Positions 35,530 through 61,493 are shown, numbered from the stretch's first letter. The stretch: 64,000 bases of DNA from Candidatus Stoquefichus sp. SB1 (GCF_001244545.1 NZ_LN852694.1:651747-715746); one strand, 5' to 3'. Numbers and translations are program-made. Notes: generated by a model from the sequence alone, not told the origin.

Positions 35530-35547
35530 AACAGAACTCATCATGTT

Positions 35548-35559: not shown

Positions 35560-35573
35560 TAATATGTAATTTG

Positions 35574-35602
35574 TGAGTGCTCTGAAAAGAGCACTCTTTT
35601 TA
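35574..35602 (+). terminator. Intrinsic terminator beside attR2
   Basis: GAGTGCTCT and AGAGCACTC arms with a GAAA loop and five T. It may be the original terminator on the far side of the guaA insertion point of an earlier element. Confidence 0.8.
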
Positions 35603-35725
35603 ATTGTATTTTTACGCAGTAGATTATTTGTTTTATTACACAAATTATCTTTTGTGGTAGCGTTTTCATAGTTTGTTTGTTATTATAATATAGAGTGAAA
35701 ATTATAACATAAGGGGGATATGATC

Positions 35726-38700: not shown

Positions 38701-39286
38701 TAAATATGGAAATGATATGTGTGAATATCGCTACTCTGTTTCTGCAAAATCTGCAAGGTTACAGAGAATGATGCAAATTCCTGGATTACAAAGCTATTTT
38801 GCTCATGCTGAACGTCAATATGCAATCGATTTTGAACTTGGCAAATACGTGATGTGTACACATTTGTTTCAGCGTATATATAAGGGGGCTTTAGGTGAAG
38901 TAGCAGGAAGATTTATATTAGAGCAGTATCAAATTGATATACAAGAGATAGAAGATATTGAATTCTTTGAATGTTTTGATTTCTGCTATGGAGATAACAT
39001 AAGTTTTGATTTTAAAAATTGGTATAAAGGCTTTAGGAAAGATTCCTATAAACAATTGCCATGGATCAAACGTAAAGCAGAGAAATCAGGTTATCTTACA
39101 GTATTTGTCATCAACATATTATACGAAGGATATCAGCGTATGGAAATTCATGAAGAAAATGCGATAAATGTAAAAATTATAATAATTCCTTGGCTTTATG
39201 ATGTAAATAAAAAAGTTTATAACGAGGAAGCACTATGTATAATAAAAGAGGAGATTATAAAATGTTCATTAATACCAATAAGATAA
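35726..39286 (+). CDS. SF2 helicase fused to a C-terminal nuclease-like domain
   Basis: About 1186 residues. Helicase motifs are in order: Walker A DAPTGSGKTYQIV (about 23-35), Walker B FFDEFDA (about 235), motif III GVSATATI (about 545), motif V TTYHTLGTGVN (about 733) and motif VI QAIGRICRTK (about 855). The last ~150 residues hold GALGEVAGRFILEQY ... SFDFKNWYKGF ... YLTVFVINIL, which resembles a PD-(D/E)XK nuclease (E, then D-X-K). A restriction-type role against foreign DNA is likely. GGGGG is 8 bases upstream of the second ATG (35726), which I prefer to the one at 35720. It overlaps its partner gene by 25 bp. Confidence 0.78.
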   Translation: MEQVFQSIIKKRIDDENISMFIFDAPTGSGKTYQIVKYIQDNYQKKKIFFIANLHNQIPDQEELTRDLDDNEKEKIKLQILRLNSILENFKSHYKDIISNKDDIQLSGFLVKNKEIIEDLSITLSILNDKPISVNQEKYYCKIFHEQERKFREAIKGYIYENCAKTKKKRKEFVQTQEWIRSLYPVIDIDDKNIILMTVQKFYYPIDPLYEKAYELSSKRYENAIIFFDEFDASKRILMDLIIDENANNYKTECFRLFRRLYDELSKWNIPKYFHVAKPKEGYNQLNLLDEIKNEVEKIQHDFEKLDKETKHILDNTFKTRNIESKHNFIFSDSDAHTITNANDARQLIYYVEDIDDKKVNIINSISYTRSSEKDLFLKSHESLNYLYQKVNKTIANFIFSYTKVIEKYMNFFNANKTINDEKMDFSSACNGMIEILNLSEENERFLTAKIMQGIRSRKARDKFEVHQVEIENDVQRSIEKFDNDKRRKKYDFYKNGFSYMEVIDSFDQHNLESKVYSYSYDMVPEKMIVNLCVNYKLIGVSATATIPSILTNYDLTYFQKVLGSRVSFCSKEEHNRIMENYQYFLSNAYEKSEIVIDFDIDRKFKCSKDEKIYLKETLIDIFGNNDLYSSHDNMVDQNESYRLKDAADLYRSFDRFCNEAKVQSFIHFVNFSVNKHEIFKTACIKVLDLMIKKYSPSIKYYFLDSEEFNKRYDPEVIPSLEKGEKVFIVTTYHTLGTGVNLKYKVTKDNLKYYDNLKLDQQKIIEKDFDGLYLSKPSNIFPFLTSENNTYHNFMQVIYALEYLNTVGGLKKDKVLDYIKKAFRITYMGISDKVIFQQEDILDITYGHLKYLIQAIGRICRTKTKGSKILILSCFDNAKLVWKTVRHQKEMNLNIEFLEFSKQACMRFDIDFASFVKSSNEANRIEKSTGYKINSYIYRKWTLESVKEWKELREFVLRYPTSNTDNSQIIKDHYIEFNEEINEYSYDGYYWTKYGNDMCEYRYSVSAKSARLQRMMQIPGLQSYFAHAERQYAIDFELGKYVMCTHLFQRIYKGALGEVAGRFILEQYQIDIQEIEDIEFFECFDFCYGDNISFDFKNWYKGFRKDSYKQLPWIKRKAEKSGYLTVFVINILYEGYQRMEIHEENAINVKIIIIPWLYDVNKKVYNEEALCIIKEEIIKCSLIPIR

Positions 39287-41208
39287 AGTTCAATATCAAA
39301 GATTTTGAATTAAAATATGATGTATTCAAAATCACTGTAAGAAATGATTCAGAAATAAAATATTTGCCAAAAAGATCAAAGATAATTCCTCGTGAACTTA
39401 GTGCTGAACTGTTATCTGTATATAATTATAGTGGAAAATGTATGTATTTATTGTTTCATAAAGATGAAATTGATTTGCAACAATTTCATGATCTTCCTAA
39501 GGAACTCGAAATATGCAAAGATAATAAGATCTATCAAGATGTGAAGTTGAATCTTTTATTAAATTCTCTTACTAAATATAAAAATGATGCAATTTTTAAT
39601 ATATCAGGACACTTTTTACAATGGGTAAAAAATACGAAAAATAAAAGAGTATATTTGGAATACAGGTTCTATCAAGGCATCTTGCAACAATCAGTTGTAA
39701 CGTATACGCAAGTAGATGAAGTTCAGTATCAGGTGTATTATGCAAAGGGTAATGATTTATGTGAGGATCCTTTAGATGCCTATGATGCTTTGTATATAAA
39801 GAAAGGCGATAGAAATCACAAAAATAGGATTAGATTCATTAATGTTGAGAATATTGGAAAATACCAGAATACAAAAGTATATCTCTTTTCGCAAGTCATA
39901 AAATTGATTGAAACATATTTAAATGACATTCTTGTAATTGATAGTTTAAAGGAAGAATACAATGTCATAAGGTGGGAGAAGCCTAAAGGGATTCACAAAA
40001 ACATGCTAGCCTTATTGAGTCATATAGGTTTTCATATTGTTAATCTGTGTGAAGATAAACAATGTACCGATCAACTGATATATTTGATGATGCATGCGTT
40101 TGATAAGAAGAATATAAATGAAAATGACATCTCTGTAGGGCAAGGATTAGATAAAAATAAAATAAATATCAGAATCATTCACAATAGCGATTATTATAAA
40201 AATAATAAATTACAAGATGATCATATTGCTTCAATTAATTTTGCGATACAACATATTACTTTGGAAGAATTGACACTAGAATATAATGATTTCACTATAA
40301 AGAATAAAAAACGCAGTAATATAGGTCAAAAAATTCTTTTTGAGGGTTTGATAAAATATGAAATTATACACAAAACATTTCATTTAGCAACAATTGAAAA
40401 TGCATTTATACAAGAAGAGTGGAAATATTATATGAAAGAAAATGATCAATTTTACTTGCTTCAATTCAAAGATCATAGTCCTGAGTATCAACGTATCAAT
40501 GCACATGAAATACCTGATGAATTAAGTAAAAATAATAGAAAAGATTTTTATGCAATAGAAACATCTGATCATACATTTTTGAAAATAGAGGAAAATTTAA
40601 AATATCATCCATTACCAGATTTTAAGATTATCGAAAATCGCTTATATGAATGTAGCCAATTTGATTTTATAGATAAATCAGAGTTAATTAGAATGATAGA
40701 GTCTTTTGAAAAAAATAACAGGGATTGCTATGAAGGAGAATTATTGAACATATTTACTAATAAGATTAAGGATTTATTAAATAATTTAAAGCAGTTGCCT
40801 GAAAAAGAAATAGATCGAGATCAAATAAAAAAAATTTTTCCATCTGATAGAAAAAAACCTTATATAAAAAGAAAGGTGTATCAGTTCATATATGAGCAAA
40901 CAGGAAAAAGAGTGGATGCGGAATTAGAGAAACCAGATGTTGTAGTTACTTATATGGGTGGACACATATATATAAATTACAAACAAGAGTATAAAAATAT
41001 GTATTATACAGTGGGAAAAATCAGCGAAAAAGATTTTAGAAATAATATGAGTACAACGAATCAAATTAAAAAACTGGTGAATTGTAGCCCGTCAGATTTT
41101 GAAGTTTATAGCCGTATGTTATGTGTGGATTTTGTAAGAGTGAATCAGCTAACTGCTATTCCTTTTGTGTTTAAATATTTAAGAGAGTATTCTAGTATGC
41201 AACGATAA
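39262..41208 (+). CDS. Unknown 648-residue partner of the helicase-nuclease
   Basis: Start at 39262 (AGAGGAG, 8 bases upstream), 25 bp inside the helicase gene, so the two are tightly coupled. The protein has an alpha/beta N-terminus and a central stretch NKINIRIIHNSDYYKNN...DDH...FAIQHITLEE (about 300-345). The C-terminal ~120 residues (KPYIKRKVYQFIYE ... VVVTYMGGHIYINYK ... VFKYLREY) are again alpha/beta. I cannot name a family. PIWI-like proteins that pair with DinG-type helicases are one possibility, resting only on the gene pairing and general look. Confidence 0.6.
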   Translation: MFINTNKIKFNIKDFELKYDVFKITVRNDSEIKYLPKRSKIIPRELSAELLSVYNYSGKCMYLLFHKDEIDLQQFHDLPKELEICKDNKIYQDVKLNLLLNSLTKYKNDAIFNISGHFLQWVKNTKNKRVYLEYRFYQGILQQSVVTYTQVDEVQYQVYYAKGNDLCEDPLDAYDALYIKKGDRNHKNRIRFINVENIGKYQNTKVYLFSQVIKLIETYLNDILVIDSLKEEYNVIRWEKPKGIHKNMLALLSHIGFHIVNLCEDKQCTDQLIYLMMHAFDKKNINENDISVGQGLDKNKINIRIIHNSDYYKNNKLQDDHIASINFAIQHITLEELTLEYNDFTIKNKKRSNIGQKILFEGLIKYEIIHKTFHLATIENAFIQEEWKYYMKENDQFYLLQFKDHSPEYQRINAHEIPDELSKNNRKDFYAIETSDHTFLKIEENLKYHPLPDFKIIENRLYECSQFDFIDKSELIRMIESFEKNNRDCYEGELLNIFTNKIKDLLNNLKQLPEKEIDRDQIKKIFPSDRKKPYIKRKVYQFIYEQTGKRVDAELEKPDVVVTYMGGHIYINYKQEYKNMYYTVGKISEKDFRNNMSTTNQIKKLVNCSPSDFEVYSRMLCVDFVRVNQLTAIPFVFKYLREYSSMQR

Positions 41209-41264
41209 ATGTTTAATTATATAAGGAATATAGAATAAAAATTGCTATTTGACGTTTACCATAA

Positions 41265-41510
41265 AATCATTGAATTTAACAAAATTTAGAAGAATGAGAT
41301 TGAATTTTCTCAAAGAGCATCATAAAATTATCTATACTAATATGTTAATTATTAATACGATAAATGAACTTTACAAAATATAAATGTTGACGCTAATTAA
41401 TTATATGACAAACTCATTGATGATCATAAGAAGAGAAGAAATATAACTGAGAATTGAAAGAAGAAAATCAACTAAAACGAGTTCAACAAATGAATAATAT
41501 ACTATATAAT
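41265..41510 (+). pseudogene. Decayed TnpV copy
   Basis: Nucleotide similarity to the intact tnpV (26253-26615) is plain, for example AGATTGAATTTTCTCAAAGA and TATACTAATATGTTAA, but stops and frameshifts break it. It marks the former end of another mobilizable element to the right of the guaA island. Confidence 0.75.
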
Positions 41511-41649
41511 TTGATATGTAGTATAAATTAGTATTTGAAAACTTGGAAGGGTTCTACAATACAGTAAGAATAGATTTACACTGTAACTATCAGAGTCCAA
41601 ACAAATATGAAGACAATTACATGTTAGAAAACACTAACTTAAATTCTTA

Positions 41650-42401
41650 CATTTAAGTTGTCCGAAATCTTGATATAGTACCAATAATTGATGATAAAAA
41701 AATTGATAGAGCTTGTAGAAGAATGCAGCAAGTGTTAGATGGTAGTGTTATGGCAAATCAATTCATGGTTAAGGAGAATGAGAAGCGATATAATTATGCT
41801 ATTAAAGGTACAAAAGTAATTGACTTATCAAAGATGGATTTTGATCAACTGTGTCAAGAAATTAGAAGGTCTCCGTATAAAGCAATTGAAATTGATGATA
41901 TGAAAGACTTTATCGAAATACTCTTCAGCAAATGATTAATGAAAATTGTACAAGAATCAAATGTCAGAACGCGATAAGGACATTATTGATAGATATAATG
42001 CAGGAGGCATTGAAAATAAAGATTATTATAAGCAATTGATTCAATTGATGGAAGAATTAAAACAAGAATCTGAAAGATTTGTATTTAAAGTTTTAACAGA
42101 AGAACTTGAATTGTATGATTTGCTGATTCGTGGTAAAAAAATTAACATAAAAAAAGAACAACAAGTTAAATTAGCAGCAAAACATCTATATACAACAATT
42201 ATAAATAAGAGATTAAAATTGCTTGTAGTTGATTGCTATAAAGATGAGCAACCAAAAGTAAGGCACACTATTGAAGTTGCTTTAAATGATGATTTAGCTA
42301 GGTGTTATGGTAAAGAATCTTTTAATGCTAAGATTGACTTGTTATTGAATTACTTTATTGATATGGGGATTCAAAGATATGGATGGATTAAATATGCATA
42401 G
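41650..42401 (+). pseudogene. C-terminal remnant of a type I restriction HsdR subunit
   Basis: Two adjacent open stretches in different frames (to 41935, and 41946-42401) read in sequence as the C-terminal helical region of HsdR: VPIIDDKKIDRACRRMQQVL, VIDLSKMDFDQLCQEI, then IIDRYNAGGIENKDYY, LMEELKQESERF, EELELYDLL and a final MGIQRYGWI. The motor and nuclease domains are gone, and no hsdM or hsdS is visible. The frames break near 41920-41950. Confidence 0.7.
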
Positions 42402-42534
42402 AAAGAATCTTACGATGAATAAAGATGAAATTATAAATTACTTATTATTGAATACTAATATTAATTTTCTTATGTAAGCAGGTACTTTTATAAATTTTAT
42501 TGATAGAAAGATATAGTATAAAGGAGTTAGTATA

Positions 42535-44682
42535 ATGAAATTAGAAAGTATTACAATTGAAAACTATAGACAGTTTGAAAAAGCAAAATTAATTTTTGAT
42601 AAAGGGGTCACTATTTTGGCAGGAGCCAACAATAGTGGGAAAACATCATTGGTTAATTTGATGAAAAATATATTTGTGAGTGAGAAACTTGAATATAATG
42701 TTTCGGATATTCCTGCAAAAAATATACAAGAATGGGTGGATTGGGCATATCCCATATTTCATGATTTCTTTATAGATGGAAAAACTATAGCAGAGGTAGA
42801 TGGAAAACTTGTAGATACTATTATTTCAAAAGATGAATCTATTCAACCACACTTGATGAAAACAACCCATATTAAAATTCATGTATCATATAATCCAGAG
42901 ATAGATGATATTAAATTATTTGCAGACTATATCATGGATTTGGATGAAACAAAGCATGATTTCTATTTTCAGTACAATTATGAAATAAATCGTTCAAAGT
43001 TTGTTCGAGCAATAATAAATGATTTTGTCAAAATAAAGCGTAGATTTGATGAAATCGAAGAAGATAAGAATGCTCTTACAGATCCATTTGATGAAAAAGC
43101 TACGAGCAATATTGTGGTAAAGGAACGTTATTTGAAACAATTGATTGCCGGTCTTTATGTCCAGTCAACAATAGCAGTTGGATATTATTGTAATAGAGAT
43201 TATAGCAGTAATTGTAAATTTGATGAACTGAAAGAATTTAGGCAGTTATTTTATTTTTGTTTTATTAAAGCAAGTAGGCCATTAGATGATGATGAATCAG
43301 ATCATTCTCATATGCTTAGTAAGCAGATGATAAAAATGGCAAAGCTTGATGACAGTTGGAATGAATTGGTTGAAAGACTTCCTGATGAATTACTTAAACC
43401 GATTCAAGAAAAAGAAATCGATAAAACAGTACGAGATACATCACTAAAATCTCTAAAAGATACAATTGTTGCTTTAGAGAAGACAAATGGTGGAAAATCT
43501 GGTGAACTTATGTTAGATATGCAAGTTACTGAGGAGGATATTAGTGATTTGCTTCAGAGGATTACTACTGCCACTTATAATGTGGATGGATATTATTTAG
43601 GTGAATCATCTCAGGGACTAGGATATAGCAATATGATTTATATTCATCTCCAATTGAAGGAATATGAAAAAAATGTTGATCCTCTTAAAGTTAATATGTT
43701 TTTCTTGGAGGAACCGGAATCCCATATGCATCCTCAGATGCAACAAGTCTTTATTAAATACTTGTTGGATTATTATCAATCAAAAATGCAGGGATTGATT
43801 ACAACTCATTCCAATGAGATGGTTCGTGTTACGGGCATTTCTCATTTACGTGTTATACGCCATGCAGAAGATTTTAAAAGTAATTTATATGATTTGTCCT
43901 TGCTTCTGAGTGAACTAAAAGAATCAGAAGAGTTATCAGACAATGAATTAGCTGATTTCTTTGACTGGTTCTTTGAAATCGGTTATTCAGAAATAGTATT
44001 TGCTGATAAAGCAATTTTTTATGAAGGAGATACCGAAAGATTGTTTATTCGAAAATTAATGACATTAGATAAATTTAAAAAATTAGGTCAGCAATATGTT
44101 GCGTTTATACAAGTTGGTGGTGCATATGCAAAAAATTATGAGAAATTGATTAGAATATTAGGAATAAAATCTTTAATCATTACTGATATAGATTATGGAA
44201 AAGAAGAAATTATTATAACGAATATTTGTAATTCTGAATCAACAAATGATACATTAAAACATTTCTATTCTATTTATCATCCGACAGAATCTCCTACTGC
44301 AAAAAATCTGTATGATTGGAAAGAAAAGAAAGGTAATATAATTGATAATCTTATTTATATATGTTTTCAGACAGATAAAGATGGGTATGCTAGAACACTG
44401 GAAGAAGCGTTGCTTAATAAATATTTTTCTATAGATGTAAGTAATACATTTAAGAAAAAAGAGTGGAAGAAGAAAAGAAAGAATTCAAAACTCAAATTTT
44501 CTATTCCAAGTAAGAAAAATACGAAGTCCGTTTCAGATAACGATATTGTATCAATACGTGATGTTTTAAATTCAACATCGCAAAATAAGATAGATTTTAT
44601 GTATTCTGTAATAATGAATGGTTATGTAGAAACGATGATACCGGAATATATTGATGGGGGTTTAACATGGTTGATGAAGTAG
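42535..44682 (+). CDS. OLD-family ATPase/nuclease, Gabija GajA-like
   Basis: A 715-residue protein. The N-terminal ABC-type ATPase has Walker A GANNSGKTS (about 30-38), a signature-like GESSQGLGYSNMI (about 356) and Walker B FLEEPESHMHP (about 391) followed by ITTHSNEM. A C-terminal Toprim nuclease domain has IFYEGDTERLFI (about 495) and IITDIDYGKEE (about 547). GajA of the Gabija defence system has this order but is shorter (about 580). RBS AAGGAG is 9 bases upstream. It overlaps the helicase gene by 16 bp, as gajA and gajB usually adjoin. Confidence 0.82.
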   Translation: MKLESITIENYRQFEKAKLIFDKGVTILAGANNSGKTSLVNLMKNIFVSEKLEYNVSDIPAKNIQEWVDWAYPIFHDFFIDGKTIAEVDGKLVDTIISKDESIQPHLMKTTHIKIHVSYNPEIDDIKLFADYIMDLDETKHDFYFQYNYEINRSKFVRAIINDFVKIKRRFDEIEEDKNALTDPFDEKATSNIVVKERYLKQLIAGLYVQSTIAVGYYCNRDYSSNCKFDELKEFRQLFYFCFIKASRPLDDDESDHSHMLSKQMIKMAKLDDSWNELVERLPDELLKPIQEKEIDKTVRDTSLKSLKDTIVALEKTNGGKSGELMLDMQVTEEDISDLLQRITTATYNVDGYYLGESSQGLGYSNMIYIHLQLKEYEKNVDPLKVNMFFLEEPESHMHPQMQQVFIKYLLDYYQSKMQGLITTHSNEMVRVTGISHLRVIRHAEDFKSNLYDLSLLLSELKESEELSDNELADFFDWFFEIGYSEIVFADKAIFYEGDTERLFIRKLMTLDKFKKLGQQYVAFIQVGGAYAKNYEKLIRILGIKSLIITDIDYGKEEIIITNICNSESTNDTLKHFYSIYHPTESPTAKNLYDWKEKKGNIIDNLIYICFQTDKDGYARTLEEALLNKYFSIDVSNTFKKKEWKKKRKNSKLKFSIPSKKNTKSVSDNDIVSIRDVLNSTSQNKIDFMYSVIMNGYVETMIPEYIDGGLTWLMK

Positions 44683-46613
44683 TAGATAATATTTTTCTTG
44701 TAAATGCTCCTGCTGGAAGTGGTAAAACAACATGGATTAGACAACAAGTTGAGCAGTATCTTTTACAAAATCCTTATGATAATGTTTTGTGTATTACATA
44801 TACCAATCGTGCAGCAGAAGAATTAGGGAGAGATTTGGATAGAAAAAGAGTATACTTTGGCACAATTCATAGTTTTATTAATGATTTTATCAGTAGTTTT
44901 TTTGCTCATTCAGCAATTATTGATCTCTACTGGGAAATTTATAGTGATAAGATTGCAGAGCAAATAGAAAATATTATACAAAATAGCAATTGGGAAGAAA
45001 GTAATGAAAGATATAAAGAAAAATATGGTAGCATTGACTTAGAAACAATTCGTTCAAATATTGAATATATTTCTTATAGTGAGGCACCATTTACATCTTT
45101 GTATAGAGGAACTTTAGGTCATGATGACTTGATATCTTTCACAAGATTGGCTGTTGATAGATTTCCAGTAATAAAAAAGAAAATAGTTGATAAGTATCAA
45201 ATGATATTTATTGACGAATATCAAGATACGGCATCAGATGTTCTCCATATTTTTTATACATCTGTTGCAGGTAAAAAGTCTAAGTTATATTTACTTGGTG
45301 ACAAGATGCAACAAATATATAGGAATTATAACGGTGAATTTGAAGAAGAATTTAAAAGACTTAATAAATCTATAAATCTTTCTACAAACTATAGAACCAC
45401 TCCTAAGATAGTCTCTATTTTGAATGCAATCTATAATGATGAGTTTTTGAAACAAAATCCGTATGAAAAAAATAGTGATGATGTTATGGCATTTTTACCT
45501 AAGGTGCTGTTTTCCTCAGATCCAGAGAAAAGTGTTCTAGAGTTTAGAAAACAATTTGGAGATGCGTTGATATTGTATTTATCTAACAAATCTAAATTTC
45601 AAAATATTGGAGTTGAAAAATTGTATGACGCTTATGATAATATGGAAAAGTATCGATATGGAAGAAAATATTCTGCTGTTGATGTATTAACAAAAGATGA
45701 TGCAAGAATTAATGATGTATTGCTTACATTTTTATTTATTACAGATCAATTAGTTAGATACTATAATCAGGGATATTATGGTGAAGTTCTTAGAATTGTT
45801 CGCAAACAGCACATTTATTTAAATTCTGAAAAATTTGTAATTAAAGTGCATTCGGATAAGAAAAAACTAAAAACTCAAATAGAGATAATTACTAGTGCAT
45901 ATAATAATGCAGAAATGACAATTAATCAGTTTTTGGAAATATGTTGTCAGGATGAGTTTATTAGAGAAGAGATATATTTTGCTATTGTTGAAGATTCAGA
46001 TTATCAGTTTGTAAAGGATGTAAGAGTTCAGGAAATAGAATTACTTACAAATTATTTAAACAATCCAAAAATATCTACTCAGCATGGTGTAAAGGGTGAA
46101 AGCCATGATACCGTTGTATTTGTTGCAGAAAATAGTAAAAATGGAAATCTACCTGTACATATGTCAAAGTTTTTTGAACTTTGGAGCAATATAGATGTTA
46201 CATTATCTAAGTTTGATGCTTTTTATTATTCTTATAGCAAATTGATACATATGATTGAGGTGGGGATTGGAATGAAATGCTCAGAATTAAAGGCAGTCAA
46301 TTATACTTCTGTAGCAAATATTATAGATGATTTCTTGCAGTCGTTTATATTAGCAAACAGCACTAATCCTTATTATAATTATCTACTTAAAGAAAAAATG
46401 GATAAGTATAATGGTAGAAAGAATGTTACTAATGTGAAAAATTGTTTAAAAGAGGGGACAGTATTAGGACCACTTTGTGCATATAGATTATTCTATGTAG
46501 GTTGTTCTCGTGCAAGAAGAAACCTTATCATAGTGATAAATAAAACAGATGTTTCAGAATTTGAAGATAAACTTCGTGTTAAATTAGAAAACTGTGGATT
46601 TAGTGTAGAATAA
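44667..46613 (+). CDS. UvrD/Rep-type helicase, Gabija GajB-like
   Basis: A 648-residue superfamily 1 helicase: Walker A NAPAGSGKTTW (about 11-21), motif Ia TYTNRAAEEL, GTIHSFIND, motif II FIDEYQDT (about 181), motif III LLGDKMQQIYRNY, motif IV NYRTT, motif V STQHGVKGESHDTVVF (about 470) and motif VI FYVGCSRARRN (about 610). GajB proteins are about 490 residues; the extra length lies mostly between motifs IV and V. With the OLD nuclease upstream it forms a two-gene anti-phage unit. Confidence 0.82.
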   Translation: MVDEVVDNIFLVNAPAGSGKTTWIRQQVEQYLLQNPYDNVLCITYTNRAAEELGRDLDRKRVYFGTIHSFINDFISSFFAHSAIIDLYWEIYSDKIAEQIENIIQNSNWEESNERYKEKYGSIDLETIRSNIEYISYSEAPFTSLYRGTLGHDDLISFTRLAVDRFPVIKKKIVDKYQMIFIDEYQDTASDVLHIFYTSVAGKKSKLYLLGDKMQQIYRNYNGEFEEEFKRLNKSINLSTNYRTTPKIVSILNAIYNDEFLKQNPYEKNSDDVMAFLPKVLFSSDPEKSVLEFRKQFGDALILYLSNKSKFQNIGVEKLYDAYDNMEKYRYGRKYSAVDVLTKDDARINDVLLTFLFITDQLVRYYNQGYYGEVLRIVRKQHIYLNSEKFVIKVHSDKKKLKTQIEIITSAYNNAEMTINQFLEICCQDEFIREEIYFAIVEDSDYQFVKDVRVQEIELLTNYLNNPKISTQHGVKGESHDTVVFVAENSKNGNLPVHMSKFFELWSNIDVTLSKFDAFYYSYSKLIHMIEVGIGMKCSELKAVNYTSVANIIDDFLQSFILANSTNPYYNYLLKEKMDKYNGRKNVTNVKNCLKEGTVLGPLCAYRLFYVGCSRARRNLIIVINKTDVSEFEDKLRVKLENCGFSVE

Positions 46614-53128: not shown

Positions 53129-53767
53129 TGGGAAGAAAAAAGTAAATATTCAAAAGAACTGAAATTAAGCATTGTAAAAAGATATTTAAATGGTGAAGAA
53201 TCAACTATTTCTTTAGCCAAAAAGATAAGTATAAAAAAGAATGTTGTGAGCAATTGGATAAAAAATATCAGGCATTTGGTGAAAATGCATTGAATACATC
53301 GACATAAAAAATTGTATAATAGTCATATAGAACTAAAATATTATATTCATGGAGGAGAAAATATCTATATGGCTAAAAGCGGAAAAGTCAATAAGGGAGA
53401 ACGTATTGAAATTGTAAAGTACTGTCTTGAACATGATATGGATTATAAGACAACAGCTAAGGTATTCGAAACAACTTACGCTAATGTCTTTAACTAGGTT
53501 AAGAATTACAAGGAAAAAGGAGAAGAAGGTCTAGGCGACAAACGTGGACGACATAAAACGGATGAAGAAGTTGATGAAGTGACATTATTAAAGCGTCAGC
53601 TTAAACAGAAGGAACATGAACTTGGAATGGCACAACTGAAGCTTAGACTTCTAAAAAGGTTGGACGAGATCGAAAGGAGGAGGTCTATCGAACAAGCAAA
53701 CAAGAAGCAGAATATGAAACAATCAAAACAATTAGCGAAGAAGCGACAGATAAAGAGAACACACTAA
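53129..53767 (+). pseudogene. IS3-family OrfA, broken
   Basis: AGGAGG at 53117-53122 precedes a first helix-turn-helix (KYSKELKLSIVKRYLNG, ISLAKKISIKKNVVSNWIK, AFGENAL), which is broken. A second part from 53370 (KGERIEIVKYCLEHDMDYKT, then VFN-stop-VKNYKEKGEEGLGDKRGRH) has a TAG at 53495-53497 where a Trp is expected, and continues into a coiled region (LLKRQLKQKEHELGMAQLKL). Together they look like a two-helix-turn-helix OrfA that can no longer be made whole. Confidence 0.7.
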
Positions 53768-53778
53768 ATATATCACTT

Positions 53779-54680
53779 ATGTGCAGAATACTAGGTGTAA
53801 AACGCGCAAACTACTATAAATGGCTACAACATGAAAAAAGTGCAGTAGATAAAGAAAATGAAGAAATAGCTGAATGTATCAGAGAATATCATAAAAAATA
53901 TAACGGATTACTAGGCTGCCGTATGATGGCTGACAGAATCAATAGAGATTATAATAAGAATTACAGTGATAAACGTATCTATAAGATTATGAGAATATTA
54001 GGTATTCATAGTATTATTCGTCCTGAACGAAGAAGCTGCATAGTCAGAAAATACAACAACACAGCCAGGAATAATCTCAAAAGAGATTTCAATGCATCTA
54101 GGCCAAATGAAAAATGGGTGACGGATGTCACGGAATTCAAATATGGACCACATAATGAATATAAGTTATATCTAAGTGCCTTTATTGAGTTTTATGACAG
54201 AACAGTTGTCAACTATGAAGTTGGTGATCGCAATAATAACACACATGTCTTCAACACATTTGATAAGACAGTTAAAGACAATCCACAGCCTTTATTCCAC
54301 AGTGATGGCGGTTTTCAATATACAAGTTCAGTTTTTATAAATATGATTAAGGCACATGGAATGATACAAAGCATGTCAAGAATTCACTGCTGCATAGATA
54401 ATGAACCAATGGAAAGATTCTGGAGAATCATGAAATGTGAGATGTATCATTACGGAAAACATTACAATACAAAAGAAGAACTTATTAAGGCTATAGATGA
54501 CTAGATTGACTATTACATGTATGAAAGATATTAGAGAAGATTTGGAGTTAAGACACCCTATGAAGTCAGAAGAGAAGCATTATCTTTACAAACACTAAAT
54601 CAATATCCAATACCTGAAAATAACAGAATAAAAAAATATAAATTAGAACATTACATAAGCAGCACAACATCAGCTGCATA
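53779..54680 (+). pseudogene. IS3-family OrfB transposase, broken at the C-terminus
   Basis: An open 241-residue stretch has the OrfB DDE catalytic core: WVTDVTEFKYG (first Asp), HSDGGFQYTSS (second Asp) and DNEPMERFWRIMKCE (Glu), preceded by an N-terminal HTH_21 region (HKKYNGLLGCRMMADRINR). It stops at TAG 54502-54504, after which the same frame continues with IDYYMYERY-stop-RRFGVKTPYEVR, the normal end of the protein. The catalytic residues survive, but the two late stops and the broken orfA argue against activity. Confidence 0.75.
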
Positions 54681-54839
54681 AAGAAAAATGAAGTTGTCTG
54701 TTCGACAACTCCATCAACAACAATTTTAATTATTTAGACTGTCTACTAGACAGGGCGGTTCAAAAAGCATTGGTTTTTATACTTTAGAATTACTTATAAT
54801 AAAATTAATAAATAATATAAAAATGATTTTAAAACGAAT

Positions 54840-56374
54840 CCAAAAGTGTAAATAATTCATTTTCTAATGTTTTAGAAAGTTGTGATAGGTTAAGAGAATT
54901 ATACAGATTATTATGGTAATTCACAGGATTTGTTAACATTTCAAATATTTTATAATCATCAATATAATCAAAAAATTTTTAGAAAAAATATTTGTGCTTT
55001 ATGCTTATATGAAGCTCTTGAATCGATATTCTCTGACAAGACTCATAAAATTCTGGATATGCAACTTATATGATTATGAGTGAGAATGACATAATGTATT
55101 ATTTTAAGGATTACGGCTTTAATCATTCTTTGTTTAATGGGGTAAATTTTACTAATAGTAGTATCGATAAAATGTTGAAAGCCTAACAGTATCATAAATG
55201 GATTTATTTATTAAATCATAGGTAACGATAGATAATAGTGAGAGTATTTATATAGATTATGATTTCCCTAATATAAACACTGGTTCAGAAACGCTGACTT
55301 TAACTAAATATGGTCATACAAAGGATAATTCGGATTTATCACAAATGAATTTATCTGTAGGTTATTACCAAACTGATAAGGTTCTATTATTTTATGAGTT
55401 TTATCTGGGAGTATCATTGGTAATGCTGAATGTTAAAAAATGGTTGAGCGAACTATGAGGAATGGATATAAAGTTATTAATTTTATATTGGATAGGGGGA
55501 TATTTTTCAATTAATATTATTAAATGTTTTGAAGGAAATGATTATGACTATCTTCTGATGCCAAAGGGCAATACAGTATTTATTAGAGAAGCGATTAAAG
55601 AGTGTATACCCATATTGAAAGATGGATATTATTATTTGAGCGAATATGAATTATATAAAAAGACAATTATAAATAACTGTTTAATACAGATCGTGAGTAG
55701 TATATTCATGTTTATTATAATGATATCAGTACAAAAAAACTAGTCATTAATTAAAGATTTGAAAAGATGAATCAGCAGTTAGAAGAAAAAAGAATTAGAT
55801 AATAAAAAGGCAGGAAGATGTAGCTCCATATAAAAAATTTATAAACTGAAATTTGATAATAATGACTATTTTATGAATTATGAAAGAAAAATAAATAAAG
55901 AAATTGATAGATAGGGTGGGATTCTTTACAATTATTACTACAACAGAAATGGCAGCAAATAAAGCATTAGAAATATATCGAGATAGAGATACGGTAGAAA
56001 AAGTATTTAGGATGGAAAAGTTATATTTAGGAAATGATGTGTTTAGAATACATTCAGATGAATATTAGGAAAGTAAAGGATTTGTATCGTTTATAGCTTT
56101 GACAATAAGAAATGAAATACATAAATCATTAAAACCAGTATATTTAATGAATCGAAAAGAATATATTGCATTAAAGACACTAAAAGAATATGAAAGATTA
56201 GAAATCATAAAATTATCTGATCATAAATATCATATAAGATATAAGTTGACAAATAAGCAGAAGAAAATATTAAAACAATTAGATATAAATGAGAAAGATT
56301 ATTTAGAATTTACAAACAATGTAACACCACTGTTATTAGATGATTGGCAGTGGGGTTTTCGTATAGATGTATAA
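54840..56374 (+). pseudogene. IS1634/IS4-type transposase remnant
   Basis: Scattered frames read in order as one transposase: NDIMYYFKDYGFNHSLFNG, IYIDYDFPNINTGSETLTLT with KYGHTKDN, LLFYEFYLG, then GGYFSINIIK and DYDYLLMPKGNTVFIREAI (55480-55610), FTIITTTEMAANKALEIYRD, KVFRMEKLYLGNDVFR and, from 56099, LTIRNEIHKSLKPVYLMNRK. These are the DDE-type IS1634 landmarks (KDN, LFYEFYxG, DRGYFS, SDE). Many stops and shifts; the limits are approximate. The short ORFs at 55462 and 56099 are pieces of it. Confidence 0.7.
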
Positions 56375-56424
56375 TTTTGAGTGGAAGTTGACAATAGAAT
56401 CAAAATACAGTTTAAAACCTAAAA

Positions 56425-56469
56425 ATATTATATAGTACAATATTTGACAAATATTGTACTATATAATAT
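56425..56469. repeat. 45-bp perfect palindrome before the GHKL-ATPase operon
   Basis: Two 22-base arms (56425-56446 and 56448-56469) match perfectly around a single central A; the pattern includes TAGTACAATATTTG. It lies 27 bp upstream of the operon's first start codon and contains TTGACA and TATAAT-like hexamers. It could be an operator, a transcript hairpin, or a relic end of the transposon upstream. Confidence 0.85.
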
Positions 56470-56496
56470 AATTGTTGTGAAAGGTGTGGAAGGTTT

Positions 56497-56721
56497 ATGA
56501 AAGAAAAAAAATCAGAGAATTTCAAAAGACTTGCTGAAAATCGTACTAATAAAATAATTGATATGATGAACTTGTTGGGGAATTTATCCAATAAATCTAA
56601 TTATAGTTATTCAGAAGAACAAGTAAATATGATTTTTAATACCTTAGAAGAAGAATTGAAAAAACAAAAAGCAAAGTTTATTAAAGAAGTAAAGCCAAAA
56701 AAGAAAAAATTTAGATTGTGA
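56497..56721 (+). CDS. Small coiled-coil protein, first gene of the defence operon
   Basis: A 74-residue, highly charged helical protein: NFKRLAENRTNKIIDMMNLLGNLSN at the N-terminus, a short polar loop, then a helix EEQVNMIFNTLEEELKKQKAKF and a very basic tail KPKKKKFRL. GGAAGG is about 3-4 bases before the ATG, with AAAGGTG further upstream. It lies 18 bp before the ATPase gene. Similar small proteins occur near mobile defence genes, but the role is unknown; regulation or DNA binding is possible. Confidence 0.65.
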   Translation: MKEKKSENFKRLAENRTNKIIDMMNLLGNLSNKSNYSYSEEQVNMIFNTLEEELKKQKAKFIKEVKPKKKKFRL

Positions 56722-56739
56722 TAATTAGGAGGAATAAAA

Positions 56740-58671
56740 ATGAATGTAGCTTGGAGATTTCATCATAATGGTTATGGGCAAGGTGTAGGTTTAAATGAAG
56801 GTGGAGTTGAAACTTTTAAAGATAATCCAGACGCTTCTTTGGCAAGGGAAATTTGCCAAAATTCAATTGATGCACGATTAGAAGGTAAGCCGGCTCTTGT
56901 CGAATTTAAAACTTTTATAATAAATAGACAAAATATTTTTGGGGTTGATGAACTTACTGAACAAATTACTAATTGTTATGAATTTAGAAAGGGTAAACAA
57001 CCTGAAGAAAAACAATTGAAAAGTATGCTTGATTGTATAATGCAGGAAGAAATTACTTGCTTGAGAATCAGTGATTTTAATACTACTGGTCTTTTGGGAG
57101 TTGCTAATGATGAGATAGATAAACCATTTTATAATTTGACTAAGGGATCAGGAACAAGTGATAAAAATGGTTCTGCTGGTGGCTCAAAAGGTATTGGGAA
57201 GTTTGCATCTTTTGAGGCTAGTTTGACAAATACTGTGTTCTATTCTACGAAAACTATTGATGGTGAAACAGGAGGTATTGGAATTAGCAAGTTGAGGTCT
57301 GCTCCTTATAAGAAGGATAATCCAAGATTATTGACTCAGGGTATTGGATATTATGGAATGGGTGATGTGAACGCACCAATTCATGAAGAATTTATGCTTG
57401 ATCCTACTTTCAAGAGAAGTGAACATCAATATGGTACAGATTTATTTATTATAGGATACAACAATAGTGATGATTGGAAAGAAATAATAACTTGTGAAAT
57501 TTTGGATAGTTTTATGATTGCAATTTTAGAAGAAAAATTGAATGTCGTGGTAGATGATATAGTAATAAATAAAAATACAATTTCTAATATTATTTATTCG
57601 ACAGATATTTTAGATGTGATTAATTTGAAACTTAAAAAAAGTATAAAATCTCAATATGAATTATATGTCGGTGATGAACAAACAGGTGTTAGTGTGAAAG
57701 AGTTTGAGATAGAACAAGGAACGTTTAAAGTTTTTGTTAAGCAATATAATTCAAATAATGAGAAAGATGCAAGTAAGCAATGTATAAAAGTTAGATATCC
57801 ATATATGAAAATAATGTATGATACTGGTTATTCATATTTGCCTTATTCAGCAATGATTGTTATTGGAGATAATGAAATTAATCAACGATTAAGAGAAATA
57901 GAAAATCCTCAACACACAGGATGGTTTATAAAAAGATTGAATAACTATCCTGAAGAAAAAAGAATAACCAAAGCCATGATGAAAACAATGGATGGATTTA
58001 TTCGTGAGTTCATACAGAAAGTTTTGAGTTCTAATGTTGGAGAACAAACAGATGTAGAGGGAGCAGGTGATTTTCTTCCATCGTTTGAAGACAAAGGAGT
58101 GAATAACAAAATGATAATAACATCTGAAACAATGGATGTTTCACCAGTGAGAAAAGTCAATATTACACAACCTAAATCTGACAAAATAGGAGAAGAAGCA
58201 GAAAGCAATATATTTGATAAAGCTGAAATTGATTTAGAAAATGATGGAGATTATACTGAACCTCATGATACAGAGACTCCTCCAAATCCAAATCCTAATT
58301 CAGATCATGAACCAAATGAAAGTGGTTATAGAGCAGAAGATGGAGATGAATCACTATTGAAAAAAGTTTTATTAAGTGGAATGAGATATAGAAATATTGC
58401 CTTAGACAGTAAATCTGGGAAATATGATATAATTTTTGAATCAACTCATAATGAAATAGATTGTGAATTAGAAATTAAACAAGTTGGTGAATCAGGAGAT
58501 AAATATCATCTTAATATTATAAGTGCAAAAATAAATGGTCAAGATTGTACGGTAGAAAATGGTATTATTAAACATTTTGAAATAAAGAAAGGTAAAAAAT
58601 ACAAGATTTCTTATGTAGTTGAAATAGATGAAATGTTTGCGGGTGAGGTGAATTTAAATGCGTATAGGTAG
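56740..58671 (+). CDS. GHKL-type ATPase (MutL/MORC-like), defence-associated
   Basis: A 643-residue protein. The N-terminal GHKL ATPase has an N-box SLAREICQNSIDAR (about 31-44), a G1-like region ISDFNTTGLLG (about 107) and a G2 loop GGSKGIGKFASF (about 147-158), as in MutL, MORC and Hsp90. The middle (about 190-440) is alpha/beta, followed by a Pro/Asn-rich linker (PPNPNPNSDHEP, about 515) and a small beta-rich C-terminal domain. ATPases of this group occur in modification-linked defence islands. AGGAGG precedes the start; it overlaps the next gene by 14 bp. Confidence 0.75.
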   Translation: MNVAWRFHHNGYGQGVGLNEGGVETFKDNPDASLAREICQNSIDARLEGKPALVEFKTFIINRQNIFGVDELTEQITNCYEFRKGKQPEEKQLKSMLDCIMQEEITCLRISDFNTTGLLGVANDEIDKPFYNLTKGSGTSDKNGSAGGSKGIGKFASFEASLTNTVFYSTKTIDGETGGIGISKLRSAPYKKDNPRLLTQGIGYYGMGDVNAPIHEEFMLDPTFKRSEHQYGTDLFIIGYNNSDDWKEIITCEILDSFMIAILEEKLNVVVDDIVINKNTISNIIYSTDILDVINLKLKKSIKSQYELYVGDEQTGVSVKEFEIEQGTFKVFVKQYNSNNEKDASKQCIKVRYPYMKIMYDTGYSYLPYSAMIVIGDNEINQRLREIENPQHTGWFIKRLNNYPEEKRITKAMMKTMDGFIREFIQKVLSSNVGEQTDVEGAGDFLPSFEDKGVNNKMIITSETMDVSPVRKVNITQPKSDKIGEEAESNIFDKAEIDLENDGDYTEPHDTETPPNPNPNSDHEPNESGYRAEDGDESLLKKVLLSGMRYRNIALDSKSGKYDIIFESTHNEIDCELEIKQVGESGDKYHLNIISAKINGQDCTVENGIIKHFEIKKGKKYKISYVVEIDEMFAGEVNLNAYR

Positions 58672-59593
58672 TAGAGTTTTTCCATATCCAATATTAAATA
58701 ATTTTGAATATGCATCAGATTTTAAAAACAGTTCTAAATATGAATTGAAAAATACTTTTGTGGATAATTTTGATGTGTATAGAACAAAAAACAGTATTGT
58801 TTTTAAAGATATTCATTTTTATCTTGAAGATAAAGAATTAATTAAATTGTATGAAGAAGGTAAAATAAAAGCCTGTTTAATTGTAGAAGCTTCGGCATCT
58901 GTATATAGAGAAATGTTTGAGCTTACAGATAAACCAACTGATATCACTGTTCCGATTCATTTATTAAAAGGAGATGTTTATGTTTCTTCATATATATATG
59001 CTAACGAAAATATTGAAGGATATTATAGTCAGGGATTTGAAGATGATTATAAGGACTATAAAATTGACATTGAAAAATATTCGATTATGGCTGCAGATGA
59101 TGGATTTAAATTTAAGGTTTCTGTGAATGAAAAAGACGATAATAAGGTATCATCAATTTTTATGATTATAAGAAAAGATGAAAAAAGTGATATAATGGAT
59201 TATGAAAATTCGTCAGAGAGGATTAAAATATATTTGCCATATAAGCATTTTAGAAATTATGAAAGTTTAAAAATGCAATCTATGTATAATAATGAGTTTT
59301 TTTCTATGTTGCTTATACCTGTATTGATAAGTTGCTTGTTTGAAATTCAAGTTGAAACAAAATTAAATGAAAGTTACACTGATATTTCGGATATTATAGA
59401 TAATAAAAAATGGTTTAGTTCAATCTGTTTGGCGTATGAAAGAGAAACAAAAACAAAGCTCTCTTTAGATGATTTTAAAGATTATTCACCTTTGAAATTA
59501 GCTCAATTAGTTTTAAATAATGCTTCTTTAAAAGGGATGGAAGATTTTAGTATGCTTATGTTAAAAGGAGATAGAGGTGACAATAATGAGTGA
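58658..59593 (+). CDS. Conserved protein of unknown function in the ATPase operon
   Basis: A 311-residue protein beginning MRIGSRVFPYPILNN, with beta-rich first two thirds (KDIHFYLEDKEL, ACLIVEASASVYREMFEL, DVYVSSYIYANENIEGYY, a YSIMAADDGFKFKVSV strand) and a helical C-terminal third. I have seen RVFPYP-type openings in proteins of mobile defence islands but cannot give a domain name. GAGGTG is 8-9 bases upstream, inside the ATPase gene. It overlaps the next gene by 8 bp. Probably a structural or recognition subunit working with the ATPase. Confidence 0.65.
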   Translation: MRIGSRVFPYPILNNFEYASDFKNSSKYELKNTFVDNFDVYRTKNSIVFKDIHFYLEDKELIKLYEEGKIKACLIVEASASVYREMFELTDKPTDITVPIHLLKGDVYVSSYIYANENIEGYYSQGFEDDYKDYKIDIEKYSIMAADDGFKFKVSVNEKDDNKVSSIFMIIRKDEKSDIMDYENSSERIKIYLPYKHFRNYESLKMQSMYNNEFFSMLLIPVLISCLFEIQVETKLNESYTDISDIIDNKKWFSSICLAYERETKTKLSLDDFKDYSPLKLAQLVLNNASLKGMEDFSMLMLKGDRGDNNE

Positions 59594-60545
59594 AATAAAT
59601 ATAAAATTTATGGCAGATGACACTCTAGAAACATTGAGAGCAAATATCAGAAGTACTACCCAAAAGATTATTGATAATCCAGATGATTCTGATTGGATAA
59701 ATAATGAAACTGTTAATGATACTTACGTAACAAAAAAATATAAGATTGAAGATTTCGATTTGGAAATTCCAAATGATGAAAATGATAAAGAAACAGATAT
59801 AAAAAACTCAATCAAATTATATGAATCTTTAAAACATTTACCTAACTATGTTTTGGCAGATGAGAGATTTTGGTTATGGCTAATGTTTGATAAAACATAT
59901 AAAACTTGTCAAATACTAATGCCTATTAAAGATGCTGAATCTTCTGTGTTTAAAGATCACTGGTTATTTAGTGGAGGAAATAGGCGAGGTATATTTTTTG
60001 GGGTTTTATCTAGATGTTATTTTAGAGTTGCAATGACTGTGGATGAAACTTTAGCAGATCCTTATGAATTAAGTAAATTTGTTATTAAATTTCCTGAAAG
60101 ATTTAGAGTCTATTCATGGAGGGCAATTTCTAGTCAAAAACATATTATGTTAGGCATTTTGAAAGCAGAGAAGGCGGTTGTAGATAAATATGGAGAAGAA
60201 AGAGAAGTAAGATCAATTTATAAGGAATTGGTCAAAGATATTTCTAAACTTGGAAGTGTAAAATTAATAGATGCAATGAGTGAACAAGAAATACAGGAAT
60301 TTGTATATAAGAAATATTGTGAAAGACTTGATATTCTTATAGAAGATGAAAATAAAAGAAAATACATTAAAGCATTAAACTTTATGGAAAAAAGGACGTT
60401 AAGTAATCTACAAAAAGCAACAGATATATTTCAATCGTTAGAAAATTATGAGGATAGTCAAGAACAATTGAATATTTGTAATAAAATAATAAAGGAATTA
60501 TCTAAACCAAAAAAAAGAAAGTTGTTTTCAAGATTAAGGAATTAA
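59586..60545 (+). CDS. DUF6339-like protein
   Basis: About 319 residues. The central part, with DERFWLWLMFDK (about 93-104), DHWLFSGGNRRGIFFGVLSR (about 124-143) and FRVYSWRAISSQKHIM, resembles the DUF6339 family, found in operons with ATPases, Z1 helicases and DNA methylases. The biochemical role is unknown. I prefer the ATG at 59586, 6 bases after AGGTG, over the GTG at 59577. A terminator follows, so the unit of four genes ends here. Confidence 0.6.
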   Translation: MSEINIKFMADDTLETLRANIRSTTQKIIDNPDDSDWINNETVNDTYVTKKYKIEDFDLEIPNDENDKETDIKNSIKLYESLKHLPNYVLADERFWLWLMFDKTYKTCQILMPIKDAESSVFKDHWLFSGGNRRGIFFGVLSRCYFRVAMTVDETLADPYELSKFVIKFPERFRVYSWRAISSQKHIMLGILKAEKAVVDKYGEEREVRSIYKELVKDISKLGSVKLIDAMSEQEIQEFVYKKYCERLDILIEDENKRKYIKALNFMEKRTLSNLQKATDIFQSLENYEDSQEQLNICNKIIKELSKPKKRKLFSRLRN

Positions 60546-60592
60546 ATGTTGATATAAATCAATTATAATAAGTTCTAAATATCTAAATTATA

Positions 60593-60620
60593 AAAAAACT
60601 GATATTTTTATCAGTTTTTT
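60593..60620 (+). terminator. Terminator between operon and methyltransferase
   Basis: AAAAAACTGATA (60593-60604) and TATCAGTTTTTT (60609-60620) around TTTT. Confidence 0.88.
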
Positions 60621-60634
60621 GTTTCAATTTACTC

Positions 60635-60657
60635 AAGTTACCTTTATAATGTAACCT
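60635..60657 (+). promoter_or_regulatory. Promoter -10 with overlapping palindrome for the methyltransferase
   Basis: TATAAT (60645-60650) lies between GTTAC (60637-60641) and GTAAC (60651-60655). The inverted repeat would let a bound regulator, possibly the methyltransferase or a controller protein, block the promoter. The matching -35 (TTTCAA, 60622-60627) is weak. Confidence 0.45.
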
Positions 60658-60683
60658 TAGTTAAGATTGGAGTTGATTGTGTT

Positions 60684-61493
60684 TTGAATACATTATTAAA
60701 ATGGGCAGGAGGGAAAAAACAATTGTTTAAAGAAATTGAAAATAGACTTCCTGATGAATATAATAATTATATTGAACCATTTTTTGGTGGGGGCGCAGTT
60801 TTTTTTAAATTATGTCCATCACATGCTATAATTAATGATATGAATGTAGAATTAATAAACTGCTATAATCAAGTTAAAAACAATCTTGATCTAGTAATTA
60901 AGGAACTTGATAAAATACAAAGTGAGCATAATTTGGTCTCTGATCATGATGAGTATTATTATTCAATTAGAGATTTATTTAATAAACGTCGTTTTTCCGT
61001 AGAACTTAATTACGAAGATGCGGCAATGATGATATATTTAAATAAAGCGGGATTTAATGGGATGTATAGAGAAAATAAGAAAGGTTTATTTAATATACCT
61101 TCAGGCAAAAAGGAGTTCGTCACTTTATATGTAAAAGATAATTTGATTGAATGTTCAAAACAATTAAAGAAAGCTCGAATTTTTCAAGGCGATTTTGAAC
61201 AAGTTTGTTTAATGGCTAAAGAAGGGGACTTTGTTTTTATTGATAGTCCATACTATGATACATTTGATACTTATCAAGCTGGAGGCTTTAGTGAAGATGA
61301 TCATAGGCGATTGGCTAATGTATATAGAATTTTAACGCAAAGAGGAGTAAAATGTATGTTAACTAATAGTGATAAAGACTTTATTAAAAATTTATATAAG
61401 GAATATAATATTGATGTTGTAACCGTTACTAGAATGATAGGTTTTAGAAAAGAGAGAAAAAAAGAAAATGAAATTATTGTAACTAATTATTGA
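60684..61493 (+). CDS. Dam-type DNA adenine methyltransferase
   Basis: A 269-residue N6-adenine methyltransferase of the Dam/DpnIIA class (alpha group). AdoMet-binding motif I WAGGKKQLF (about 7-15), YIEPFFGGGAVFFKL (about 30-44) and catalytic DSPYYDTFDTY (motif IV, about 188; DPPY is usual, so the first Pro is replaced by Ser) are visible, plus CMLTNSD. Target is probably GATC or similar. It starts with TTG, about 11 bases after GGAG. It has its own promoter but the same direction as the ATPase operon, so it is the likely modification arm of that system; no restriction nuclease is obvious nearby. Confidence 0.88.
   Translation: MNTLLKWAGGKKQLFKEIENRLPDEYNNYIEPFFGGGAVFFKLCPSHAIINDMNVELINCYNQVKNNLDLVIKELDKIQSEHNLVSDHDEYYYSIRDLFNKRRFSVELNYEDAAMMIYLNKAGFNGMYRENKKGLFNIPSGKKEFVTLYVKDNLIECSKQLKKARIFQGDFEQVCLMAKEGDFVFIDSPYYDTFDTYQAGGFSEDDHRRLANVYRILTQRGVKCMLTNSDKDFIKNLYKEYNIDVVTVTRMIGFRKERKKENEIIVTNY

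What the first reader, a model, noticed from the sequence alone, without database searches (positions are those of the whole stretch)
56425..61493. GHKL-ATPase operon plus Dam methylase: candidate modification-linked defence system without a visible nuclease
Four tightly packed genes (74-residue coiled coil, MutL/MORC-like ATPase, RVFPYP-type unknown, DUF6339-like) are followed by a separately promoted Dam-type methylase. ATPase/DUF6339 operons elsewhere tend to carry a Z1 helicase and a nuclease, which are not visible here. Either a compact variant exists in which one unknown protein cleaves DNA, or the system works by another mechanism using methylation for self-recognition.
Basis: partly seen in the sequence, partly recalled or inferred. 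Interest (0 to 1): 0.75.

Follow-up and report, generated by a model that had tools for sequence, protein, structure and literature searches.

The report
Methylase-linked ATPase operon with palindrome-controlled promoter
This is a four-gene bacterial operon of a catalogued but untested anti-phage type that normally sits beside DNA restriction-modification genes; neither unknown protein looks like a DNA-cutting enzyme, and its smallest gene is probably the operon's own off-switch, acting on a conserved DNA palindrome that also precedes related ATPase operons.

Summary
Observation confirmed, interpretation partly wrong. The ATPase, the 311-aa and the DUF6339 proteins are PADLOC candidate system PDC-M33 (E 3e-142, 9e-53, 9e-39). 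The ATPase has intact GHKL motifs and the ExxxH motif that marks the paraMORC2 family. DNA methyltransferases of several classes lie within 8 kb in 50 of 65 loci with enough flank: the module is a swappable partner of restriction-modification systems. AlphaFold models of the 311- and 319-aa proteins give no evidence of a nuclease fold. The methylase is DpnII-type (probably GATC), separately transcribed and the genome's only D12 methyltransferase; no DpnII, MutH/Sau3AI or PDLC03513 nuclease was found in the genome.

New here: the 74-aa gene (S) is preceded by a perfect 22-bp inverted repeat lying on a consensus promoter. A 17-bp palindrome AATATTTnnnAAATATT precedes S in about 85-90% of M33 loci, is missing from 29 loci without S, and precedes S at some other GHKL-type operons. 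S is therefore most likely an autorepressor. How ABC acts on phage DNA is inferred, not shown.

The parts
56425..56469 (.). perfect inverted repeat, 22-bp arms around one base; contains the 17-bp operator core AATATTTGACAAATATT
   Evidence: unique in the genome
56444..56472 (+). sigma-70-like promoter TTGACA-17-TATAAT (12/12) lying on the palindrome
   Evidence: 40 such consensus matches in the region against 41.8 expected, so the weight rests on its overlap with the conserved palindrome
56497..56721 (+). S, 74-aa basic small protein, candidate autorepressor (family in none of Pfam, PADLOC, NCBIfam, PHROGs)
   Evidence: (35-row alignment)
56740..58671 (+). A, GHKL ATPase, PDC-M33A / paraMORC2-like (motifs REICQNSID 36, ISDFNTTGL 110, GGSKGIGK 147, ENPQH 388)
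   Evidence: motif definition from PMC2292703
58658..59593 (+). B, PDC-M33B; N-terminal beta-sandwich (about 9-156) plus C-terminal helical domain; no nuclease match
59586..60545 (+). C, PDC-M33C / DUF6339; mostly helical; no close structural match
60593..60620 (.). 12-bp perfect inverted repeat (4-nt loop) with T run, terminator-like, between C and Dam
   Evidence: not flagged by the G+C-based terminator scan
60684..61493 (+). Dam-type (D12) adenine methyltransferase, DpnII-M-like clade with motif IV DSPY; only D12 MTase of the genome

Best explanation
The operon is a member of the R-M-linked GHKL module PDC-M33 (paraMORC2-type). SHOWN by computation: S, A, B and C form one unit whose order recurs across Bacillota, Actinomycetota, Treponema and plasmids; the neighbourhood is strongly enriched in DNA methyltransferases; a palindromic operator accompanies S and not A. 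[quoted passage not shown] A, an ATP-gated dimerising clamp of the MutL/MORC type, with adaptors B and C, loads on or loops DNA that lacks the host mark. The linked methyltransferase supplies that mark (here Dam, probably GATC). Cleavage, where it happens, is done by the R-M nuclease encoded beside the module in many relatives. In this genome no GATC-type nuclease was found. So either the module now works by holding or remodelling unmodified DNA, or its restriction partner has been lost and Dam remains as an orphan.
For: PADLOC M33A/B/C matches. GHKL motifs present in nearly all of 90 relatives; ExxxH as in paraMORC2 (PMC2292703). 50 of 65 loci have an MTase within 8 kb (C5 27, D12 15, N4/N6/IIG others), against about 0.016 expected per 18 kb from the density of C5 and D12 genes in 60 related genomes. 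R-M partners differ: AlwI, type I-like, Sau3AI+Dcm, Dcm-Vsr-type II, Dam+REase PDLC03513 family in 5 loci. B and C show no nuclease fold. Operator: long palindromes upstream of S in 11/70 against 6/435 controls, p 1e-6; motif in 84-92% of 51 S-bearing M33 loci against 7-11% of AT-matched controls; absent in 29 S-less M33 loci (mean z about 0.5); present at held-out S loci with other GHKL-type genes (L130, L131, L134) and in viral contig L162. No DpnII, MutH or PDLC03513 nuclease in the genome.
Against: No experiment exists for PDC-M33 in the papers found; it is an unpublished PADLOC candidate class (PMC11811056). The loading/looping role of A is analogy to MutL and MORC. The structure of A was not modelled. 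S has no detected similarity to RptR or to any HTH family, so DNA binding by S rests on co-variation alone. 15 of 65 loci showed no MTase by my detection, and 29 of 90 loci lack S. The operator motif was trained on the same 51 loci; truly held-out sites are few, and the solo-S loci mostly lack it. L163 and L166 have S but a weak site.
Confidence: 0.6

Rival explanations
1. A self-sufficient compact system: B or C is a nuclease of a new fold, and Dam protects the host.
For: No nuclease gene sits in the operon and no GATC-type nuclease was found in the genome. DUF6339 has conserved polar residues (R94, R134, R143, D153, D229) and no close fold match, so a new active site cannot be excluded.
Against: Models of B (pLDDT 90) and C (pLDDT 95) show an Fn3/Ig-like sandwich plus helices, and an almost all-helical protein. 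Only 5 columns of B and 1 of C are invariant, with no D/E..ExK, HNH or HKD pattern among them. Relatives carry separate restriction enzymes next door.
Confidence: 0.07
2. Non-nucleolytic silencing: ABC is a MORC/SMC-like machine that traps or compacts unmethylated phage DNA, with methylation as the self mark and no cleavage at all.
For: S-A-B-C is the constant core while nucleases and MTase types vary; GHKL+S5 ATPases of the MORC family were proposed to loop DNA (PMC2292703); no nuclease found here.
Against: Many relatives sit beside full R-M systems with nucleases; no direct evidence that A binds DNA.
Confidence: 0.2
3. A decaying locus: the R-M nuclease has been lost, Dam is an orphan, and the operon is kept by chance.
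For: IS-like remnants just upstream (55904-56374, IS3-type 53312-54504); no partner nuclease in the genome; Dam's closest plasmid relative is on a small plasmid without a recognised nuclease.
Against: All five frames are intact, ATPase motifs complete, operator and promoter perfect; DSPY is shared by Dams in DpnII-type R-M systems (L101, L103), so it is not a lesion.
Confidence: 0.15
4. S is a structural subunit of the GHKL ATPase, and the palindrome is bound by another factor.
For: S precedes at least four unrelated GHKL-type ATPases; invariant C-terminal F-x-L tail suggests docking.
Against: The operator is found where S is and missing where S is missing, although A, B and C are the same; S is the first gene and basic (pI 9.9).
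Confidence: 0.2

Closest known systems
PADLOC candidate PDC-M33 (unpublished phage-defence candidate)
   Same: All three proteins A, B, C, full length, in order
   Different: S matched no PADLOC model and the operator is not part of the candidate; no mechanism was found described for it
paraMORC2 GHKL family in R-M neighbourhoods (Iyer, Abhiman and Aravind 2008, PMC2292703)
   Same: GHKL motifs, ExxxH motif, Gram-positive bias, R-M context
   Different: No Z1-type SFII helicase here and in 82 of 84 relatives; no direct comparison with the 2008 sequences was possible
RptR, small repressor of R-M defence islands (PMC12255303)
   Same: First gene, 74 versus 79 aa, basic small protein, palindromic site on its own promoter
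   Different: No sequence similarity found; 17-bp AT-rich operator or long perfect inverted repeat instead of TAGCTA repeats; linked to GHKL ATPases, not type I R-M
DpnII-type R-M (Dam-type M plus DpnA plus DpnII)
   Same: Window Dam is near, in known records, to Dams of such systems, with shared DSPY
   Different: DpnII endonuclease is absent from the genome and no second methylase lies beside Dam
Mza / MutL-Z1 operons
   Same: GHKL ATPase; the large HTH protein in relatives has a weak local MzaA match
   Different: No Z1 helicase; A does not match any Mza model

Membership tests
PDC-M33 | M33A ATPase, full length | tested here: met
   E 2.6e-142, residues 1-641 of 643
PDC-M33 | M33B adjacent | tested here: met
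   E 8.9e-53
PDC-M33 | M33C (DUF6339) adjacent | tested here: met
   E 9.2e-39; DUF6339 E 3e-35
paraMORC2 | GHKL ATP-binding motifs intact | tested here: met
   Pfam HATPase_c_3 only E 0.21, so motif-based
paraMORC2 | ExxxH in the C-terminal part of the S5 domain | tested here: met
   E388-H392, E and H invariant in the 11-row alignment; that it lies in an S5 domain is by position only
paraMORC2 | S5 fold after the GHKL domain | not tested
paraMORC2 | R-M gene neighbourhood | tested here: met
   50 of 65 loci with an MTase within 8 kb; Dam next door in the window
MORC/paraMORC-Z1 or Mza system | Z1 helicase | tested here: not met
   absent from the genome; motif in 2 of 84 relatives
DpnII R-M system | Dam-type methylase | tested here: met
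   TIGR00571; GATC specificity itself is inferred
DpnII R-M system | DpnII endonuclease | tested here: not met
   no PF04556 in the genome
RptR regulators | sequence homology to RptR (PDB 9R2Z) | tested here: inconclusive
   no RptR match among PDB sequences at E<=10; whether 9R2Z is in that copy was not checked
RptR regulators | TAGCTA repeats in the promoter | tested here: not met
   none in window 56380-56497 by reading the sequence
RptR regulators | binds its own promoter and represses | not testable with these tools
   needs EMSA or a reporter
Shedu-type paraMORC3 fusion | C-terminal DUF4263 nuclease domain on the ATPase | tested here: not met
   no such match in A

The most novel reading that the evidence does not exclude
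S founds a new family of small autorepressors that act on a conserved palindrome (AATATTTnnnAAATATT, often grown into perfect 15-27-bp inverted repeats lying on the promoter). It serves as a shared switch in front of several unrelated GHKL-type ATPase defence operons, M33 being one. The long, perfect but sequence-diverse palindromes might make the switch sensitive to DNA supercoiling or phage takeover.
Probability: 0.5. Interest if true: 0.62.

Novelty: new variant of a known kind. Interest (0 to 1): 0.5.

Why it matters
It turns an unnamed candidate (PDC-M33) into a testable picture: a constant S-A-B-C core that attaches to many different R-M systems and does not appear to cut DNA itself. It also names a piece the family libraries lack, a small regulator with a predictable operator, which gives a handle for finding further GHKL-type defence operons and for asking how prokaryotic relatives of MORC/MutL ATPases use DNA methylation marks.

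Tried and rejected
Z1 helicase in the operon or genome: absent. A nuclease fold in B or C: Foldseek gave no match with E<=0.001 for either; best for B E 0.017 (Fn3), VIA-align Z 6.5; best for C VIA-align Z 7.5 to a DNA-binding protein C-terminal domain (4pqk) over 91 residues, with weak KorB/ParB hints (Pfam KorB E 0.1); below the level at which I would claim a fold. Sequence profiles of A, B, C, S against PDB: nothing credible. Motif IV DSPY as an inactivating change: rejected, shared by DpnII-linked Dams. The three Mrr-type nucleases of the genome as Dam's partner: no methylase beside the two whose neighbourhoods I fetched, and the third sits next to a caspase gene in the window. The large 850-1185-aa gene of many relatives as a helicase: it carries a sigma-70 r4-like HTH in most tested representatives and no helicase or nuclease domain. 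Rfam: no hit. GATC depletion (0.60 of Markov expectation in about 122 kb): not informative, since other palindromes are also low. The palindrome as a regulon site: only one copy in the genome.

Full report
OBSERVATION. The five genes are present with intact frames at the stated place. S is 56497-56721, A 56740-58671, B 58658-59593, C 59586-60545 and Dam 60684-61493. S to A is 18 bp, A/B and B/C overlap, and Dam lies 138 bp downstream behind a 12-bp inverted repeat with a T run. That repeat carries a TTGACA-17-TATAAT promoter. Arms of that length are not expected by chance: the best palindrome score in shuffles of the same upstream averaged 6.9 and never exceeded 9. The sequence occurs once in the genome.

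WHAT THE OPERON IS. PADLOC models identify A, B and C as PDC-M33A, B and C. Pfam sees only DUF6339 in C and nothing above cut-off in A or B. PDC names are unpublished candidate systems (PMC11811056); no paper in the held library names PDC-M33 or DUF6339. A has an N-box REICQNSID, ISDFNTTGL, GGSKGIGK and an invariant E388-x3-H392. Iyer and colleagues give ExxxH in the S5 domain as the mark of paraMORC2, a Gram-positive and cyanobacterial family of R-M neighbourhoods (PMC2292703). I therefore call A paraMORC2-type; a direct comparison with their sequences was not possible.

RELATIVES. One scan of bacterial genomes found 339 relatives of A; 80 were fetched, plus plasmid loci and six viral contigs. 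S-A-B-C order is the constant part. The neighbours change. Among 65 loci with at least 8 kb of flank in total, 50 have a DNA methyltransferase within 8 kb: C5 in 27, D12 in 15, N4/N6/IIG in others. The background is at most 0.91 C5 or D12 gene per Mb in 60 related genomes, about 0.016 per 18 kb. Partner nucleases seen include AlwI, a type I-like set with GIY-YIG, MutH/Sau3AI, a Vsr-linked type II enzyme, FokI-like, Mrr_cat, and a 431-aa type II enzyme family (PDLC03513) directly behind a Dam gene in five loci. Z1 helicases are rare (motif in 2 of 84 loci). The 850-1185-aa gene found in 33 loci, either between S and A or elsewhere in the locus, mostly has a sigma-70 region-4-like HTH and no enzyme domain. 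So M33 is a module that attaches to different R-M systems.

THE METHYLASE. The window's Dam is the only D12 methyltransferase in the 3.59-Mb genome, where no C5 methyltransferase was found either. It lies 138 bp from the operon. Among its nearest annotated relatives are the first methylases of DpnII-type systems in a Staphylococcus plasmid and Mycoplasmopsis, and a 52%-identical Dam on a small plasmid. All three share the unusual DSPY motif IV, so it is not a lesion. The genome has no DpnII, MutH/Sau3AI or PDLC03513 nuclease. Two of its three Mrr-type proteins were examined and are not next to a methylase; the third lies in the window beside a caspase-domain gene. GATC specificity is inferred by relationship.

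ARE B OR C NUCLEASES? AlphaFold models are confident within domains (B pLDDT 89.9, pTM 0.57; C pLDDT 94.8, pTM 0.88). B is a beta-sandwich, with loose Fn3/GH2-sandwich resemblance (best Foldseek E 0.017; VIA-align Z 6.5), plus a helical domain. C is almost all helical, without a close match. There is no PD-(D/E)XK, HNH, GIY-YIG or PLD match, and there are few invariant residues. A nuclease of a wholly new fold is not excluded but is not suggested by anything here.

THE SMALL GENE AND ITS OPERATOR. S has no match in Pfam, PADLOC, NCBIfam or PHROGs. Homologues are found in 61 of 90 M33 loci. Long palindromes (score 14 or more) lie within 150 bp upstream of S in 11 of 70 loci, against 6 of 435 control upstreams in the same contigs (p 1e-6); two of the control hits are the same sites, shared with divergent genes. 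A palindromic motif fitted to 51 M33 S upstreams gives AATATTTnnnAAATATT. 84-92% of these pass an empirical 1/30 cut against their own shuffles, but only 7-11% of 228 AT-rich controls. These 51 were the training set. Independent checks are: (a) 29 M33 loci without S lack the motif, mean z about 0.5 with one above 3; (b) S loci in front of other GHKL-type genes, not used in training, have it in L130, L131 and L134, though L143_3 is weak and in L097 the site only stands out by z; (c) viral contig L162 has it, L165 a GC-shifted version, L163 and L166 only weak ones. The operator follows S and not A, B or C. The economical reading is that S binds it and represses its own operon, as RptR does for type I R-M islands (PMC12255303). 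S shows no sequence relation to RptR and has no TAGCTA repeats, so it is at most an analogue.

S BEYOND M33. In an S-driven search of 392 genomes, S stood in front of M33A at ten loci and of other GHKL-type genes at four (the L130, L131, L134 and L143 types). At nine it stood without one; eight of those nine belong to one family of genomes. Plasmid cases add an 802-aa gene in Ensifer and a 621-aa GHKL gene in Agrobacterium and Dinoroseobacter, in the former followed by GajA and a UvrD helicase. The GHKL assignment of the L130 and L097 types is by motif only; L134 and L100 have sub-threshold HATPase_c_3 matches.

MECHANISM. Shown: the unit, its R-M linkage, the operator's co-variation with S, and the lack of recognisable nuclease folds. 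Inferred: S autorepression; A as an ATP-gated clamp or looping engine with B and C as adaptors; methylation as self mark; cleavage by the linked R-M nuclease where one exists. In this genome a linked nuclease was not found. I cannot decide between a silencing mode and a lost partner.

VERDICT. The system is a member of a catalogued candidate class. Its regulator and operator, shared with other GHKL-type operons, are the new part. Interest is moderate.

Noticed in passing
window 26772-46613: Defence island on the same contig: Mrr_cat protein beside a caspase-domain protein, a SIR2_2 protein of 1156 aa, and an OLD-type AAA/TOPRIM protein followed by a UvrD helicase (Gabija-like).
   Followed up: partly
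L150 4018-12862 (about 3 to 12 kb past the window's end): ORFs that read like a CRISPR-Cas operon (Cas3-, Cas4-, Cas1-, Cas2-like by eye); not searched against families.
   Followed up: no
L044, L046, L135, L141 downstream of M33C: Dam-type methylase of about 440 aa whose C-terminus matches DUF7226 in L046, the same domain that ends the 431-aa REase PDLC03513: possible methylase-restriction fusion.
   Followed up: partly
L020-L042, L047-L095 (33 loci): 850-1185-aa protein with sigma-70 region-4-like HTH, sometimes an RNA polymerase alpha-CTD-like domain, and apparent winged-helix-like repeats; recurrent companion of M33, weak local match to MzaA.
   Followed up: partly
L137-L146: Solo S genes without a GHKL partner, several beside a 2'-5' RNA-ligase-like gene, in one genome family; mostly without the operator.
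   Followed up: partly
L100 6016-11288, L098: S, then a 621-aa GHKL protein, then GajA (E 8e-221) and UvrD helicase in L100: a Gabija locus with an S-GHKL pair in front; L098 similar with one more gene between.
   Followed up: partly
window 53312-56374: Remnants of transposase genes (IS3-like by eye; IS1634-like fragments, weak match) directly upstream of the operon.
   Followed up: no
upstream of S in L068, L085, L039, L079, L131 and window: The promoter palindromes can reach 19-27 bp of perfect arms whose outer sequence differs between relatives: unusual for a protein operator, compatible with selection for the symmetry itself.
   Followed up: partly
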